Below are positions 4,891 to 40,735 of a DNA stretch of 40,735 nt, piece after piece. Source of the DNA: Bacteroidales bacterium (GTDB lineage: Bacteria > Bacteroidota > Bacteroidia > Bacteroidales > P3); the NCBI GenBank assembly GCA_031260565.1, contig JAISLH010000088.1:1-40735 (forward strand). Direction: 5' to 3'. Positions within the stretch are counted from its first letter, which is position 1, and each line of letters opens with the position of its first letter. The translations under genes and the position numbers were made by a program. Below the pieces are notes generated by a model. The model ran no database searches. It was given only the letters and a program-made list of their open reading frames with translations, and had not been told where the DNA came from.

Positions 4891-5148
4891 AAACGCCACT
4901 TTAATTTAGTCAAACGCCGTTTTAATTTAGCGAAGTGGCGTTTTATTTTCATTAGATGTACATCAAAAATAAATTATATGTACATCAAAAATAAATTAGA
5001 TGTACGTCAAAAATAAATTAGATGTACATCAAAAATAAATTAGATGTACATCAAATAAAAATTAGATGTACATCAAACAGATTTTAAACGCTACTTCAGC
5101 AAAATAAAGTGATGTTTGGCTAAGTTAAAGCAGCGTTTGGAGAAGTTA
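4891..5148. repeat. Tandem 21/22-bp phased array 1 (AAACGCC class plus GATGTACATC class)
   Basis: Twelve core motifs are spaced evenly in the gap between the divergent bamD and OmpA-like genes. Cores begin at 4891 (AAACGCCACTT), 4912 (AAACGCCGTTT), 4933 (AAGTGGCGTTT, the reverse complement of the first), then 4955, 4977, 4999, 5021, 5043 and 5065 (GATGTACATC, or one-base variants at 4977 and 4999), then 5086 (AAACGCTACTT), 5107 (AAGTGATGTTT) and 5128 (AAGCAGCGTTT). Steps are 21 bp in the AAACGCC class and exactly 22 bp in the GATGTACATC class. Spacers are A/T-rich. The flanks 4685-4890 and 5149-5224 hold only promoter sequence and nothing else recognisable. Confidence 0.9.
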
Positions 5149-5288: not shown

Positions 5289-6269
5289 ATGAAAAGAAAC
5301 GTCATTATTTTAGCCGCAATTAGCGTTTTGTTGTTGTCAGGCTGCGTGTCAAAGAAGGAATTTGCCGATATGGAGTCAAGATACAAAAAGGCATCAAAGG
5401 CATTGAGTGATTGCCAAGAAGAAAATCAAGGAAAGGATAAGAAAAACAAGACCCTAACCGCTGATTATGAGACTCTAAATGCCAATTATACCGCAATGCA
5501 AAACTCAAACAAAGACTTGGAGCAGCAAAACAAAGATTTGAAGTCGTATAACAACGAATTGAAGTCGCAGATTGACACCGCCAACAAGCGTTTGCAAGAA
5601 GCGATGAGCAATAAGGGTGCGGATATGAAGCGAATGAGTGATGAGTTGTTTGCAGCCCGTCAAGAGCTGTCGCAAAAGACAGAAGACCTGAACGCAAAGC
5701 AAGAGGAGTTAAGCCGTTTGCAACTTAAATTCAGTGAAAAGGACGAAATGCTGGATAAATTGCAAAAAGCACTCTCGGAAAAGGAAGAAGAATTAGCTTC
5801 TATTGAGAGAAAAATATCATCAGCCTTGCTTGGCTTTGCCGATAAGGGTTTAAGCGTTGTAACCAAAGACGGCAAGGTTTATGTGTCTATGGAAGAGAAG
5901 CTGCTGTTTTCCTCAGGTAGCTGGGAGATAAATTCAGAAGGAGCGGCTGCTTTAAGAGAAATATCTAAGGTTTTAGCAAACAATCCTGATATTAACGTAA
6001 TGGTGGAAGGTCATACGGACAATGTCCCTCTCAAAGGCAAGAATCAGATTAAGGATAATTGGGATTTGTCGGTTATGAGAGCAACTTCGGTTACCAAAAT
6101 ATTGTTGGAAAATAATAAGGTGTCATCTGAGAGGGTTATTCCTTCGGGACGTGGTGAGTATCTGCCGCTTATGGACAATAAAACAGCAGAAAGTCGTGCT
6201 AAAAACAGACGTACCGAGATTATTTTAACGCCGAAGGTTGATGAATTGATGAAAATAATCGGTAAATAA
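5289..6269 (+). CDS. OmpA-family peptidoglycan-binding lipoprotein with long coiled coil
   Basis: A 326-residue envelope protein. The N-terminus is a lipoprotein signal with lipobox LLLSGC (Cys 19). Residues about 28-178 form a long Gln/Glu/Lys-rich coiled coil (for example LEQQNKDLKSYNNELKSQID). Residues about 185-322 form an OmpA/MotB-like domain that binds diaminopimelate in peptidoglycan: LFSSGSWEIN, VMVEGHTDNVPL, NWDLSVMRATSV and the closing RAKNRRTEIIL. The likely role is to tether the outer membrane to the cell wall. The gene has its own promoter and stands as a single transcription unit or leads into the small TfoX-domain gene 36 bases on. Confidence 0.93.
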   Translation: MKRNVIILAAISVLLLSGCVSKKEFADMESRYKKASKALSDCQEENQGKDKKNKTLTADYETLNANYTAMQNSNKDLEQQNKDLKSYNNELKSQIDTANKRLQEAMSNKGADMKRMSDELFAARQELSQKTEDLNAKQEELSRLQLKFSEKDEMLDKLQKALSEKEEELASIERKISSALLGFADKGLSVVTKDGKVYVSMEEKLLFSSGSWEINSEGAAALREISKVLANNPDINVMVEGHTDNVPLKGKNQIKDNWDLSVMRATSVTKILLENNKVSSERVIPSGRGEYLPLMDNKTAESRAKNRRTEIILTPKVDELMKIIGK

Positions 6270-6305
6270 TAACTTGATTGTGCCAAAACAAAACACATAT
6301 ATAAT

Positions 6306-6560
6306 ATGAGTAAATTATCTGAGCGTATAAATATAGGAAAGGTATTGGAAAGCAATCTTAATTCTGTTGGAATAGAGAGTTATGAAGATTTAACCAAACT
6401 TGGCAGTGAGGAAGCCTTTTTGAAACTACAGATGTTTGGACATGATCCTTGTATGAATACGCTTTGTGCTTTGGAAGGAGCAATAGAAGGCATTCGTTGG
6501 CACGATTTGCCGAAGGAAAAGAAAGAAAACCTTAAATTATTTTTCAAAAGCACTAAATAA
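6306..6560 (+). CDS. TfoX/Sxy C-terminal domain protein
   Basis: An 84-residue protein that is only the helix-hairpin-helix-like C-terminal domain of TfoX/Sxy: NIGKVLESNLNSVGI, SYEDLTKLGSEEAFLKL and CMNTLCALEGAIEGIRW are typical. The full-length protein regulates competence in gamma-proteobacteria. Stand-alone domains like this are common in Bacteroidetes and have no established role, so competence should not be assumed. There is no signal peptide. It ends five bases before the lemA promoter box. Confidence 0.88.
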   Translation: MSKLSERINIGKVLESNLNSVGIESYEDLTKLGSEEAFLKLQMFGHDPCMNTLCALEGAIEGIRWHDLPKEKKENLKLFFKSTK

Positions 6561-6564
6561 TTTG

Positions 6565-6572
6565 TACTTTTG
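6565..6572 (+). promoter_or_regulatory. Promoter -7 box for lemA
   Basis: TACTTTTG followed by CAC lies 27 bases before the lemA ATG and just after the preceding gene's stop. No clear TTTG was seen at the -33 position. It would be the only visible promoter for lemA, the methyltransferase-nuclease gene and parC. Confidence 0.6.
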
Positions 6573-6599
6573 CACTAAAATTATTAAAATATAAAAGAT

Positions 6600-7190
6600 A
6601 TGACAAAGAAAACTATCAGCATTATTGCAATCGTAGGTATCGTACTTTTAGTAGTCCTGTGGTCGGTAAGCAAGTATAACGGCTTGGTAAGAAAAGATGA
6701 GGCGTGCTTAAAGCAGTGGTCAGTTGTGGAAAGCCAATATCAGAGGCGATTAGACCTCATTCCTAATCTTGTAAATACCGTTAAGGGCTATGCTTCTCAC
6801 GAACAGGAGACTTTTACCGAAGTGATAAAGGCACGAAATCAGGCTATGCAGGTGAAGATTAGCTCTAAAAACATTACACAAGAGAGTTTGAACGAGCTGC
6901 AAGCAACACAGGACAACCTTTCATCAGCCTTACAGAAGTTGAATGTAGTCGTTGAGCGTTACCCTGAGCTGAAAGCCAATCAGAATTTCCTTGAATTGCA
7001 GAGCCAGTTGGAGGGAACGGAGAACAGAATAGCAGTTGAGAGGCAGCGGTTTGCAGAAATAGTAGGGGAGTTTAATGCTTCCATTCGGCGTTTCCCTACG
7101 AGCATAATTGCAAATCTTTTTAGCTTTGACCGCAAGGCTTACTTTGAGGCTCAGAAAGGTGCGGAAAATGCTCCTAAGGTAGAATTTTAA
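6600..7190 (+). CDS. lemA: LemA family membrane-anchored protein
   Basis: A 196-residue LemA-family protein. One N-terminal transmembrane helix (about residues 5-23, IIAIVGIVLLVVLW) is followed by the conserved helical block: NGLVRKDEACLKQWSVVE, then QRRLDLIPNLVNTVKGYA and ETFTEVIKARNQA, and near the end IVGEFNASIRRFPTSIIA. The family folds as a long helical bundle, and its biochemical role is not settled. The TPM-domain (YgcG-like) partner that often follows lemA is absent; a DNA methyltransferase gene follows after only 12 bases. Confidence 0.95.
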   Translation: MTKKTISIIAIVGIVLLVVLWSVSKYNGLVRKDEACLKQWSVVESQYQRRLDLIPNLVNTVKGYASHEQETFTEVIKARNQAMQVKISSKNITQESLNELQATQDNLSSALQKLNVVVERYPELKANQNFLELQSQLEGTENRIAVERQRFAEIVGEFNASIRRFPTSIIANLFSFDRKAYFEAQKGAENAPKVEF

Positions 7191-7202: not shown

Positions 7203-8861
7203 ATGGATAGCCAGCTGTTTTATGGGGATAACCTTGAAGTTCTTCGCAAAAGCATTCCCGATGAGAGCATAGACCTTTGTTATATTGACCCTCCCTTTAA
7301 TTCAAAGAGGGATTATAATCAAATCTATAACAATATAGGCTCAGAGGATAAGGCTCAAGCAATAGCTTTTGTTGATACGTGGGATTGGGATAGTGCAGCA
7401 GAGGCAGGATATAGAGAGATAATAAACGCACAAGGTGATGGCTTGTATAATATTCAAACCGTAAATCTTATAAATGGCTTACATCAAGTATTAGGTGCAG
7501 GAAGTCTGCTGGCTTATATCGTTAGTATGACTTTAAGAATAGTAGAAATACATAGAGTATTGAAGCCAACAGGTAGTTTTTACCTGCATTGCGACCCCAC
7601 TGCAAGCCATTACTTAAAATTAGTGCTTGATAGCGTGTTCTGTCCGCAAGGTGGCGAATATCAAAACGAAATTACGTGGAAAAGATATGCTGTTCATAGC
7701 CTCTCAACTAAGAGGTTTGACGCCATAACCGATACCATTTTCTTTTATTCTAAAACGAAAGGGCAACATACTTTCAACAGACAATATGAAACGTTTTCCG
7801 AGAAAGAACTGAAAAAGCGTTTCCCTCACATAGAACCGGAAACTAACAGACGCTTTCAGCACGCCTCATTGGAAAAAAATTCAAATCGCTCAAGTAAATC
7901 AGAAATTAGAATAATAGATGGTATAGAAACAACAACCGATTTAGGCTGGGTGTGGTCTCAAAAGACATTTGATGAACGTCTTGCTACAAACCCGCATCTT
8001 ATTTATTGGACAAGTGCAGGCAGACCACGTTACAAAATATATGCAGATGAATATATGGGGAGACCTATTGGGAGCAATTGGACGGATGTTCCTTATCTAT
8101 CTGCTGGAGATGCCGAGCGACTTGGTTACCCTACTCAAAAGCCAGAAAAGTTATTGGAAAGGATTGTTGAAGCGTCAAGCAATAAGGGAGATATAGTACT
8201 TGATGCCTATTGTGGTTGTGGCACTACCGTTGCCGTAGCACAAAAGCTTAAACGCAAATGGATAGGTATTGATATTACTTATCAGAGTATTTCTCTTATT
8301 TTAAAGAGATTAGAAGAGAGTTATGGCAAAAAAATCCTTGACAAAATAAGTATTGCTGGTATTCCAAAAGATATTAGGAGTGCAGAGGCATTGGCAAAGA
8401 AGCCAGATGATAAAACAAGAAAAGAATTTGAAAAATGGGCTATTCTGACCTATTCAAACAATAGAGCGTTTATAAATGAGAAGAAAGGTTCTGACAAAGG
8501 CATAGACGGCATTGCTAAAATACTTACTGCTTCCGATGAATTAAAAGATATTTTGTTTTCCGTCAAATCAGGCAAGGTTGGTGTTGCACAAATAAGGGAT
8601 TTTCGTGGAGTTATAGATAGAGACAATGCTGTTGCAGGAATTTTTATAACCCTTCAAAATCCAACAAAAGATATGATACAGGAGGCAAAGCAATATGGGG
8701 TGTATGTAAATGAATTAACTAAACAGCAGATTGATAAAATAAAAATTGTAACCATAAAAGAAATTTTGAATAGTGAAAGATTAGATTTGCCAATGGCAAT
8801 AAACATATTGAAGAAAGCCGAAAGAAAAACTGAGGATAATCAGACACAGATGGAGATTTAG
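7203..8861 (+). CDS. Adenine-type DNA methyltransferase fused to an Mrr-like PD-(D/E)XK nuclease
   Basis: The N-terminal part (about 1-375) is a beta-class amino-methyltransferase. Motif IV is IDPPF at residues 28-32. A long target-recognition segment follows, and the AdoMet-binding motif I (VLDAYCGCGTTVAVA) comes late, near residue 330, then WIGIDIT. The C-terminal part (about 400-530) resembles the Mrr catalytic fold: GSDKGIDG near 429-436, FSVKSGKV near 453, then QIRDFRGVI, AGIFITL and a helical end. The usual Gln/Glu before the catalytic Lys is Ser here. Similar fused proteins are widespread and probably modify, and perhaps cut, specific DNA. The target is not predictable. It lies between lemA and parC with 12- and 17-base gaps and no obvious promoter of its own, suggesting insertion into an existing operon. 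Confidence 0.88.
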   Translation: MDSQLFYGDNLEVLRKSIPDESIDLCYIDPPFNSKRDYNQIYNNIGSEDKAQAIAFVDTWDWDSAAEAGYREIINAQGDGLYNIQTVNLINGLHQVLGAGSLLAYIVSMTLRIVEIHRVLKPTGSFYLHCDPTASHYLKLVLDSVFCPQGGEYQNEITWKRYAVHSLSTKRFDAITDTIFFYSKTKGQHTFNRQYETFSEKELKKRFPHIEPETNRRFQHASLEKNSNRSSKSEIRIIDGIETTTDLGWVWSQKTFDERLATNPHLIYWTSAGRPRYKIYADEYMGRPIGSNWTDVPYLSAGDAERLGYPTQKPEKLLERIVEASSNKGDIVLDAYCGCGTTVAVAQKLKRKWIGIDITYQSISLILKRLEESYGKKILDKISIAGIPKDIRSAEALAKKPDDKTRKEFEKWAILTYSNNRAFINEKKGSDKGIDGIAKILTASDELKDILFSVKSGKVGVAQIRDFRGVIDRDNAVAGIFITLQNPTKDMIQEAKQYGVYVNELTKQQIDKIKIVTIKEILNSERLDLPMAINILKKAERKTEDNQTQMEI

Positions 8862-13201: not shown

Positions 13202-14059
13202 TTACGTCAGCAGGTTCGTACCCCACATAAGTTTATTACCGATTGCTGTGAAAAATGTGTGATTCTGTAGCCGCATTAGCTTGATGTCAAAGTCTGCTTT
13301 CTGCAATGATACAGTTTCTTTCTTGTTCAGCACAAATGAACGTGAGTCTAAATGAAGCGAAACATCACACCGTATGCTTTTTACTTCTAACCGTATCTGT
13401 TGAGTATCGGTTACGACCAGCGGACGAAAGGTTAGATTGTGTGGTGCTATTGGCGTGATACAAAAACATTTCACCTTAGGAGAAATTATAGGTCCTCCAC
13501 AAGACAGAGAGTAAGCCGTAGAGCCAGTAGGTGTTGCCACTATAATTCCATCTGAAGTGTAGGTGGTAAGGAATTTGTCATCAACAAAAACATCTACATC
13601 CAACATCTTTCCAGCCTTGCTTGACCGCAAACATACTTCATTTAATGCAAAATTATCTTTCCAACGCAGAAGACTGTGAAACTCCAGATTGTAGCGTTGA
13701 TTTTCTATATCAGAAAGTAAATTATCTAACTCATTTTTGCCAACAGACGTAAGGAAACCTAACCTGCCAAAGTTGATACCAAGTATCGGCACATCCGTTT
13801 TGTGTTTTCCCTCAAGTAAAAGAGCAGCTGCCGAAAGCAAAGTGCCATCTCCTCCAAGCGAAAAAAGATAATCGTGAGGGCGAAGGTCTTTTGCATTGTT
13901 AAAAATGTTATGGCTATGGGTGCGAATGTGGTCTTTTATCTGCAGATAAAATGGTTCATAGAACCGAATTTTAAAGTGATGACTCTCAATTTGATTTATC
14001 AGAAGTTGAATGTACTCAATATCTTCCGTCTTTACATTTGTGCTAAATAAAGCTATCAT
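13202..14059 (-). CDS. nadK: NAD kinase
   Basis: NAD kinase phosphorylates NAD to NADP. The 285-residue protein has the ATP/polyphosphate-binding GGDG motif at residues 69-72 (LFSLGGDGTLLSAA), the NFGRLGFLT segment, and the NAD-binding loop SDGIIVATPTGSTAYSLSCGGP. Size and order match bacterial NadK. It is cytosolic. It has its own promoter box at 14091-14098 and is followed by the YfcC-type carrier. Confidence 0.97.
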   Translation of the reverse strand: MIALFSTNVKTEDIEYIQLLINQIESHHFKIRFYEPFYLQIKDHIRTHSHNIFNNAKDLRPHDYLFSLGGDGTLLSAAALLLEGKHKTDVPILGINFGRLGFLTSVGKNELDNLLSDIENQRYNLEFHSLLRWKDNFALNEVCLRSSKAGKMLDVDVFVDDKFLTTYTSDGIIVATPTGSTAYSLSCGGPIISPKVKCFCITPIAPHNLTFRPLVVTDTQQIRLEVKSIRCDVSLHLDSRSFVLNKKETVSLQKADFDIKLMRLQNHTFFTAIGNKLMWGTNLLT

Positions 14060-14090
14060 ATTACAAATTAAATGTTATTTTTTACACCTG

Positions 14091-14098
14091 CAAAGGTA
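14091..14098 (-). promoter_or_regulatory. Promoter -7 box for nadK
   Basis: On the minus strand this reads TACCTTTG followed by CAGG, 31 bases upstream of the nadK ATG. The phased array 3 begins about 60 bp further upstream. Confidence 0.6.
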
Positions 14099-14150
14099 TG
14101 TTTTTTCTATTGAATTTTATCATTTGAAAAATAATTTTTTATTTTGACAA

Positions 14151-14445
14151 CTTAAATGCTATAGCATCTAACCTAAATGCTATAGCACCTGACTTAAAAG
14201 CTATAGCTTCTGACTTGAAAGCTATAGCTTCTGACTTAAAAGCTATAGCTTCTGACTTAAAAGCTATAGCTTCTGACTTGAAAGCTATAGCTTCTGACTT
14301 GAAAGCTATAGCTTCTAACTTGAAAGCTATAGCTTCTGACTTGAAAGCTATAGCTTCTAACTTAAATGCTATAGCATCTGACTTAAATGCTATAGCACCT
14401 AACTTAAATATTATAGCACCTGACTTAAATGCTATAACTGAAAAA
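14151..14445. repeat. Phased array 3 (GCTATAGC class, exact 21-bp pitch, 14 units)
   Basis: Cores begin at 14158, 14179, 14200 and every 21 bp to 14431, fourteen units with no slippage. Central units share AAGCTATAGCTT, a perfect 12-bp palindrome, followed by CTGACTT. The outer units are diverged: 14158 and 14368 have ATGCTATAGCAT, also a perfect palindrome, while 14179, 14389, 14410 and 14431 are imperfect. Because 21 is a multiple of three, both strands are open and read as seven-residue repeats such as AIASDLK, which I do not take as coding. The array fills the gap between the sufD stop and the nadK promoter. Confidence 0.95.
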
Positions 14446-14461
14446 GCGTATTGAGTATGTT

Positions 14462-15508
14462 TTATATCGGTTTGTGAGCCGCCGAGCACTGAAAGGCACA
14501 ATTCTCACAGGCAGAAAGCTCCCCCGCAAGTCGCATTTTAATTATCTGTTCCAAACTTTCCTTCAACGGCTCTATATTGCTTGTTGTCAGAACCTCTTGG
14601 CAAAACGCATACATCAAAAGCATCTTCGCCGAAAGCATACTTATACCCCTTGAACGTAGATAAAACAACGCCTCATCGTCTAATTGACCAATCGTAGATC
14701 CATGCGAACATTTTACATCATCATTGTATATCTCCAAGAACGGACGGGTATTCACCTTAGCCTTGTCGGTAAGCAGTATATTCTTATTTATCTGCATTGC
14801 CTCCGTACCTTTCGCCCCATAACCCACATTGACATGCCCCAGAAAAGTAGCGTGAGCCGTATCGTCTAAAATGCCCTTAAAGAGCTGTGAAGAATGACAC
14901 ATTTCAGCCTTATGATTTACATTTACAATCGTTTCTATCTCCTGCTGCTTGTCCATTAGATACAATCCATTGAGATTTGCCTGAGCATAAGGTTCATTGA
15001 GGAAAATGTTGAGCGTATTGCATATTTTCTTACCGTTGAGGCTAAATCCATAAGTGGTAAGGTTAGCCCCCTGAGACAGATGAAAATTAACCTCAGTTGA
15101 GAGGGAAGACTCGTTGTTGATATTTTCCATTTTGTAGTAGTCAAAGGAAGCATTCTCACTGAGATAAACATCAATCCTGTTGAGAGAGCTTGTCGCCTGA
15201 GTGCCAAAGGAATCATCACAATGGATGAGTTGCACCTTGCTGTTATGACCAATCTCAATTACGGCTTTGGTTTGCAAATTCTGACCCTGCTCCAAAACAT
15301 TCAGCATCTGAAGAGGTAAATTGAGGCTGACGTTGTTTGGAATCCGAATGTGAATTTCCTTCTCTCCAACAGTTTTTAAGTCAATCACACTGCCTTTGAG
15401 CAACGTCTGGTCTATTTGTTGCTCAATCAATACACCATTGTGTTGCATAATCCTTATGGTGTGCAAATTCGGAATGCTACAATTAAAATCTATATCAACT
15501 TTGCTCAT
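14462..15508 (-). CDS. sufD: Fe-S cluster assembly protein SufD
   Basis: SufD is a scaffold component of the SufBCD complex, which builds Fe-S clusters using SufC ATPase activity. The 348-residue protein shows the SufB/SufD beta-helix core from about 80 to 290. The C-terminal signature is KCSHGSTIGQLDDEALFYLRSRGIS (spanning about 268-292; the His is the family's conserved interface residue), followed by a helical tail ending in a Cys-containing segment, CENCAFQC. It follows sufC by 13 bases in the same operon. The stop lies at the edge of phased array 3. Confidence 0.95.
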   Translation of the reverse strand: MSKVDIDFNCSIPNLHTIRIMQHNGVLIEQQIDQTLLKGSVIDLKTVGEKEIHIRIPNNVSLNLPLQMLNVLEQGQNLQTKAVIEIGHNSKVQLIHCDDSFGTQATSSLNRIDVYLSENASFDYYKMENINNESSLSTEVNFHLSQGANLTTYGFSLNGKKICNTLNIFLNEPYAQANLNGLYLMDKQQEIETIVNVNHKAEMCHSSQLFKGILDDTAHATFLGHVNVGYGAKGTEAMQINKNILLTDKAKVNTRPFLEIYNDDVKCSHGSTIGQLDDEALFYLRSRGISMLSAKMLLMYAFCQEVLTTSNIEPLKESLEQIIKMRLAGELSACENCAFQCSAAHKPI

Positions 15509-40519: not shown

Positions 40520-40735
40520 AAACAAAGTAATATTTTAGCCAAACGCTGTTTTAATTTACCCAAACAGTGTTTTAATTTCTTGAAGTGGCGTTTCATTTTA
40601 TTTTGATGTACATCTTATTTTATTTTGATGTACATCTTATTTTATTTTGATGTACATCTTATTTTTGTTTGATGTACATCTTATTTTATTTTGATGTACA
40701 TCTTATTTATTTTTGATGTACATCTTATTTATTTT
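40520..40735. repeat. Phased array 8 (AAACGC class then GATGTACATC class), cut by window end
   Basis: Cores begin at 40520 (weak, AAACAAAGTAA), 40541 (AAACGCTGTTT), 40562 (AAACAGTGTTT) and 40583 (AAGTGGCGTTT), 21 bp apart, then at 40605, 40627, 40649, 40671, 40693 and 40715 (all perfect GATGTACATC, exact 22-bp steps after a 22-bp junction). The order of core classes and the spacer phrase TTAATTTA repeat array 1, 35 kb away. The spacers between GATGTACATC cores are T-rich here and A-rich in array 1. The array continues beyond the window. Confidence 0.9.

What the first reader, a model, noticed from the sequence alone, without database searches (positions are those of the whole stretch)
14151..14445. 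Fourteen-unit array with zero slippage and symmetric substitutions that keep the palindrome
Cores occur every 21 bp from 14158 to 14431 without a single indel. Central units have AAGCTATAGCTT; units at 14158 and 14368 have ATGCTATAGCAT. The left A-to-T change is matched by a right T-to-A change, so both versions are perfect 12-bp dyads. Paired changes suggest that symmetry is what matters, as for a homodimer-binding site or a DNA/RNA hairpin. Degenerate units at the edges and uniform units in the centre suggest growth or homogenisation from the middle.
Basis: partly seen in the sequence, partly recalled or inferred. Interest (0 to 1): 0.75.

Follow-up and report, generated by a model that had tools for sequence, protein, structure and literature searches.

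The report
Palindromic 21-bp repeats scattered between genes
The array is one of about twenty non-coding tandem repeats in this bacterium whose tip sequence differs between subfamilies but which keep the same mirror symmetry and an exact two-helical-turn pitch, so symmetry rather than sequence is being preserved or repeatedly re-made.

Summary
In detail: 14 cores at exact 21-bp pitch without an indel; ten of the 14 12-mers are perfect dyads and the last two cores are broken. The array lies between sufD and nadK and shows no sign of coding. It is not a single locus. About 20 arrays in this genome share the junction TTYAA-C-TTRAA while the rest of the unit differs between about ten subfamilies. 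All ten have dyad axes at the same two unit positions (70% paired; about 30% for other axes; 0 of 5000 shuffles reach it), and 143 of 144 spacings are 21 bp. A congener that keeps sufD-nadK adjacent has no array there. Unrelated 21/22-bp, often palindromic arrays occur in all four species of the genus and some sister genera, and in none of 342 kb from 20 other families of the order. Best reading: a fast-turnover palindromic minisatellite made and homogenised by fold-back or slippage synthesis, perhaps with an architectural role. Coding, RAYT transposition and strand-specific RNA selection found no support.

The parts
14149..14442 (+). Array of 14 units of 21 bp, consensus RACTTRAAAGCTATAGCTTCT; each unit a ~20-bp palindrome plus one C
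   Evidence: dyad axes
14198..14357 (+). Uniform central block: eight cores AAGCTATAGCTT at 14198-14209 ... 14345-14356
14156..14188 (+). Left edge cores: ATGCTATAGCAT, then ATGCTATAGCAC
14366..14442 (+). Right edge cores: ATGCTATAGCAT, ATGCTATAGCAC, ATATTATAGCAC, ATGCTATAACTG (progressively broken)
14462..15508 (-). sufD (SUF Fe-S assembly, SufBD core), ends about 20 bp from the array
   Evidence: Pfam SUFBD_core 5.6e-66
13202..14059 (-). nadK (NAD kinase), starts 90 bp from the array
   Evidence: Pfam NAD_kinase_C 5.3e-32
14090..14098 (-). TACCTTTGC, resembles the Bacteroidetes -7 promoter element (TAnnTTTG), between array and nadK
   Evidence: read from sequence; consensus from own knowledge, not tested

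Best explanation
A non-coding, intergenic palindromic minisatellite. The unit is one ~20-bp palindrome (conserved arms TTRAA...TTYAA, variable tip) plus a single C, two helical turns long. Shown: about 20 such arrays in the genome in about ten tip subfamilies; common dyad axes with covariation between subfamilies; pitch fixed at 21; no coding signal; no marked preference for gene orientation; absence at this junction in the congener that keeps the gene order; unrelated arrays beside nearly identical gene copies. Inferred: arrays grow and are homogenised by slippage and fold-back (template-switch) synthesis. A single-stranded palindromic unit folds on itself or on a neighbour, is extended, and is corrected to its own mirror image, so units that are near-palindromic and about two turns long amplify best and both halves of the palindrome change together. 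The centre of the array is its youngest part. Any effect on nadK or sufD is probably incidental.
For: Shared axes and covariation: 70 of 100 paired cells against 53.0 +/- 3.8 in shuffles, 0 of 5000 reach it. Fixed pitch in 20 arrays. Palindromy also in 35 independent arrays outside this family, z 6.6 against composition-matched DNA. Uniform centre, degenerate edges. Fast turnover: sufD-nadK gap of about 20 bp without array in G003, overlapping genes at the C17 locus in three congeners; gene copies 89% identical with unrelated arrays. No synonymous excess in any of six frames. All gap orientations. Single strand of the array folds far better than shuffles as DNA, z -13.5, as any tandem palindrome would.
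Against: Slippage alone does not explain why 21 rather than 20 or 23 is kept without a single indel, nor why TTYAACTTRAA is conserved between loci whose tips have diverged. Most within-array changes break symmetry, so mirror correction, if it works, is slow. No growth was observed directly.
Confidence: 0.5

Rival explanations
1. Architectural DNA: a dimeric nucleoid-type protein binds the shared dyad TTYAACTTRAA every 21 bp, on one face of the helix, and forms a filament or bend; the tip is a symmetric but sequence-free spacer.
For: Junction conserved between ten subfamilies and itself a dyad centred on C; exact two-turn pitch; arrays in all gene orientations; 21- or 22-bp pitch in sister genera too.
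Against: AACTT is not clearly enriched in arrays of congeners, so the supposed site would change from species to species; arrays come and go between species; no binding protein is known; AA/TT phasing at 10.5 bp is not significant overall.
Confidence: 0.25
2. A mobile or dispersing element: array subfamilies are copied into new gaps by an unidentified transposition or recombination activity.
For: Subfamilies occur at 2-4 loci each; array present in gaps that are 0-20 bp in congeners, with ATGA on both sides of the C17 array; some arrays share flanks as well (C39, C73, C94).
Against: No Y1 (RAYT-type) transposase in any of the four genomes of the genus; no constant termini seen around most arrays; shared flanks at C94 and C97 go with duplicated genes.
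Confidence: 0.12
3. RNA element: the array is transcribed with sufD-nadK and forms a long hairpin that affects the mRNA.
For: Both strands fold far better than shuffles; the sufD-nadK sense strand is the stabler one, -148 against -110 kcal/mol.
Against: Any tandem palindrome folds so. Over ten arrays with a defined sense the stabler strand is sense in 4 and antisense in 6; G-T and A-C products of single changes are 22 and 15; convergent gaps hold arrays as well.
Confidence: 0.07
4. Coding: the array encodes heptapeptide repeats (LKAIASD on one strand, EAIAFKS on the other).
For: 21 bp is seven codons; two frames are open here; some other arrays lie in ORFs with an ATG and partly similar N-termini (C60, C72, C73, C9).
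Against: No ATG in either frame here; no synonymous excess in any frame over 86 changes; 22-bp arrays in the same genomes cannot keep a frame.
Confidence: 0.06

Closest known systems
REP/BIME elements (repetitive extragenic palindromes) and RAYT transposases
   Same: Short intergenic palindromes, dispersed in subfamilies, 20-40 bp (PMC3733652)
   Different: Here units are contiguous head-to-tail arrays at exact 21-bp pitch, no GTAG or CGTC tag in the consensus units, no Y1 transposase in the genus
[quoted passage not shown]
   Same: Tandem repeats with dyad symmetry in DNA that varies in sequence (PMC2996958)
   Different: PARCELs are 25-residue (75-bp) coding repeats inside ORFs; here 21 bp, intergenic, no coding signal
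Bacterial intergenic minisatellites / VNTR loci
   Same: Head-to-tail copies, homogeneous centre, locus-specific unit
   Different: Symmetry axes and pitch shared by many loci with different sequence; unit is a complete palindrome
Hairpin elongation of repetitive palindromic DNA by DNA polymerases in vitro (own knowledge, not looked up)
   Same: Tandem near-palindromic units that can grow by fold-back extension
   Different: An in-vitro reaction; nothing here shows that it happens in this organism

Membership tests
REP/RAYT system | RAYT (Y1, HUH tyrosine) transposase in the genome | tested here: not met
   PF01797 absent in all four genomes of the genus; control genomes ring
REP/RAYT system | GTAG or CGTC tag beside the palindrome | tested here: not met
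   No such shared tag in the 21 consensus units; shared part is TTYAACTTRAA
PARCEL | 75-bp repeat coding for a 25-residue domain in an ORF | tested here: not met
   21-bp unit, no ATG in open frames, no synonymous excess
Tandem operator (homodimer-binding iteron) | Same core sequence at the sites of one regulator | tested here: not met
   Cores differ between about ten subfamilies; a dimer bound at the junction remains possible
CRISPR array | Repeats separated by unique spacers | tested here: not met
   Units contiguous at 21 bp, no spacers
Intergenic minisatellite | Head-to-tail copies outside coding sequence | tested here: met
Intergenic minisatellite | Unit number varies between strains | not testable with these tools
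   One genome per species is held; congeners lack the array here

The most novel reading that the evidence does not exclude
A family-wide class of structure-read DNA: intergenic arrays whose dyad symmetry and two-turn helical pitch are maintained while the letters change freely, acting as binding or bending platforms for a dimeric chromosome protein that reads geometry (and in this species the TTYAACTTRAA junction) rather than a core sequence.
Probability: 0.22. Interest if true: 0.78.

Novelty: new variant of a known kind. Interest (0 to 1): 0.52.

Why it matters
The arrays are a natural experiment with many replicates: unrelated sequences under one symmetry and one pitch, in neighbouring species. 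They make it testable whether palindromic symmetry is kept by selection (a dimeric reader) or is a by-product of fold-back DNA synthesis. They would also be a bacterial case of satellite-like DNA with subfamilies that turns over faster than the genes beside it. Searches of an open-access library found no description of it, but most subscription papers are not held there.

Tried and rejected
Coding heptad repeat: no start codon here and no synonymous excess. RNA hairpin under strand-specific selection: no strand preference. Rfam: only sub-threshold matches, nearly all animal microRNA models. REP/RAYT: no Y1 transposase. Terminator or promoter role tied to gene orientation: arrays in convergent, divergent and co-directional gaps alike in the genus. 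A-tract phasing as a general cause: second-harmonic AA/TT power not significant over 70 arrays, though high in G163. AACTT as a genus-wide constant: not clearly enriched in congeners.

Full report
Observation. The array is real and regular. TRF gives 14150-14436, period 21, 13.7 copies, no indels; the 14 cores sit at 14158 + 21n. Ten of 14 12-mers are perfect dyads, two are quasi-dyads, and the two at the right end are broken. Units 3-10 are uniform except for A/G at unit positions 1 and 6; units 1-2 and 11-12 carry the ATGCTATAGCAT/C version. Unit 1 is identical to unit 11 and unit 2 close to unit 12, so the paired exchange is at most one or two events, and the uniform block lies between two older ends.

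Place. The array lies between sufD (14462-15508, -) and nadK (13202-14059, -), with a TAnnTTTG-type -7 element between array and nadK (14090-14098, read). Two frames are open through it but neither has an ATG.

It is a family. A pattern for the shared part, RACTTRAA-N13-RACTTRAA with one mismatch allowed, gives 102 matches in the genome against 4 for the reversed pattern. Together with arrays found in sampled stretches this makes about 20 loci. Tips include GCTATAGC (here), GCTGTGGC, ACTATAGT, GTTATAGT, GTACATGTAC, GTCAATTGAC, TCCATGGA, TTCCATGGAA and AAAGTGTTCTTT. All spacings are 21 except one of 42.

Symmetry rule. With A of AACTT as position 1, position x pairs with 6-x (mod 21): one axis lies at the C of AACTT, the other between positions 13 and 14. 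Over ten independent subfamilies (more than 5 of 21 differences) this axis has 70% Watson-Crick pairs, the next best axis 38%, the mean over all axes 30%. Dealing the partner letters anew among loci gives 53.0 +/- 3.8 paired cells against 70 observed, and 0 of 5000 shuffles reach it. Pairs (1,5) and (2,4) are partly fixed by the search pattern, but the shuffle keeps those columns, and five of the arrays were found without the pattern. So the unit is one ~20-bp palindrome, arms TTRAA...TTYAA, plus one C. Not every subfamily obeys fully: TTGTCCTACA (C51, C52) pairs only in its arms and GTTATAGT needs G-T pairs.

Inside arrays. There are 86 distinct changes in 19 arrays: 70 transitions and 16 transversions. 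Single changes that break a Watson-Crick pair number 43; both-sided WC-to-WC changes number 3. G-T products (22) and A-C products (15) are about equally common. No frame shows an excess of synonymous changes. Symmetry is therefore not enforced unit by unit; it is set when a new variant spreads through an array, or it is selected weakly.

Turnover. G003 keeps sufD and nadK adjacent with a gap of about 20 bp and no array. At the C17 locus three congeners have the two genes overlapping at ATGA, while this genome has an array between them with ATGA on both sides. clpP and ribE are a few bp apart in G003 and are separated here by a terminator-like hairpin, the array and a leader. Six of 16 places of a multi-copy 226-aa gene family have an array 30-50 bp upstream of the start; copies C72 and C9, 89% identical in protein, carry unrelated tips.

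Distribution. Sampled stretches of the four genus genomes hold 2.7-9.5 arrays of 21-22 bp per 100 kb, with higher-order periods that are mostly multiples of 21. Some sister genera have 22-bp arrays (G163, 11.7 per 100 kb, such as AAAAAAACATATGT) or a mix of 21 and 22 (G175, G138); 342 kb from 20 other families of the order hold none. The AACTT constant at this period was found only in this genome and, with another unit, in G003; the hits in another genus are 7-bp repeats. Over 35 independent arrays outside the sampled AACTT arrays, units are still more palindromic than composition-matched pieces of the same loci (0.63 against 0.52, z 6.6). In the genus, arrays lie in 12 of 50 convergent, 15 of 60 divergent and 31 of 192 co-directional gaps (simple ORF calling).

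Mechanism. Fold-back or slippage amplification explains the palindromy, shared axes, paired variants, homogeneous centres and fast turnover. It explains the exact pitch and the conserved junction less well; for those the architectural rival is better. REP/RAYT, coding and RNA readings lack support. I hold fold-back origin as the main reading at 0.5 and an architectural role at 0.25; the two are not exclusive.

Limits. The genome is a 133-contig assembly with some contig ends inside arrays (C35, C73, window right end), so unit counts are lower bounds. Only one genome per species is held, so the strain test was not possible. Taxon names of the genomes are hidden; the nearest named record, whose sequence at this locus matches G003, is a Bacteroidales MAG, Md513_bin13. 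Distribution outside the genus rests on sampled stretches, not whole genomes.

Noticed in passing
window 4951-5077 and 40595-40735; L013, L015, L021, L025, L027: A second kind of phased palindrome, at 22-bp pitch: GATGTACATC, and GGTATATACC with 78 matches per strand in the genome, dispersed and often flanked by AAACGCCGTTT repeats; some contigs break in it.
   Followed up: partly
L087, L028, L096, L097, L101, L102: A multi-copy gene family of about 226 aa without a Pfam match (16 places); six copies have an array 30-50 bp upstream of the start codon.
   Followed up: partly
L101 about 2020-2040; L093:1-71: A run of nine G, and a run of about 70 C at a contig end, in the leaders of such arrays; possible slippage tract or assembly artefact.
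   Followed up: no
window 7203-8861: N6/N4 DNA methylase domain fused to an Mrr-type restriction endonuclease domain.
   Followed up: no
L159, L160, L206-L209 (G163): Another genus of the family has 22-bp arrays of alternating A- and T-tracts around CATATG, with AA/TT phased at 11 bp; likely curved DNA.
   Followed up: no
L010:4856-5097, 6266-6611, 14070-14406: 69-bp repeats (23 residues if coding), three sets in one 20-kb stretch.
   Followed up: no
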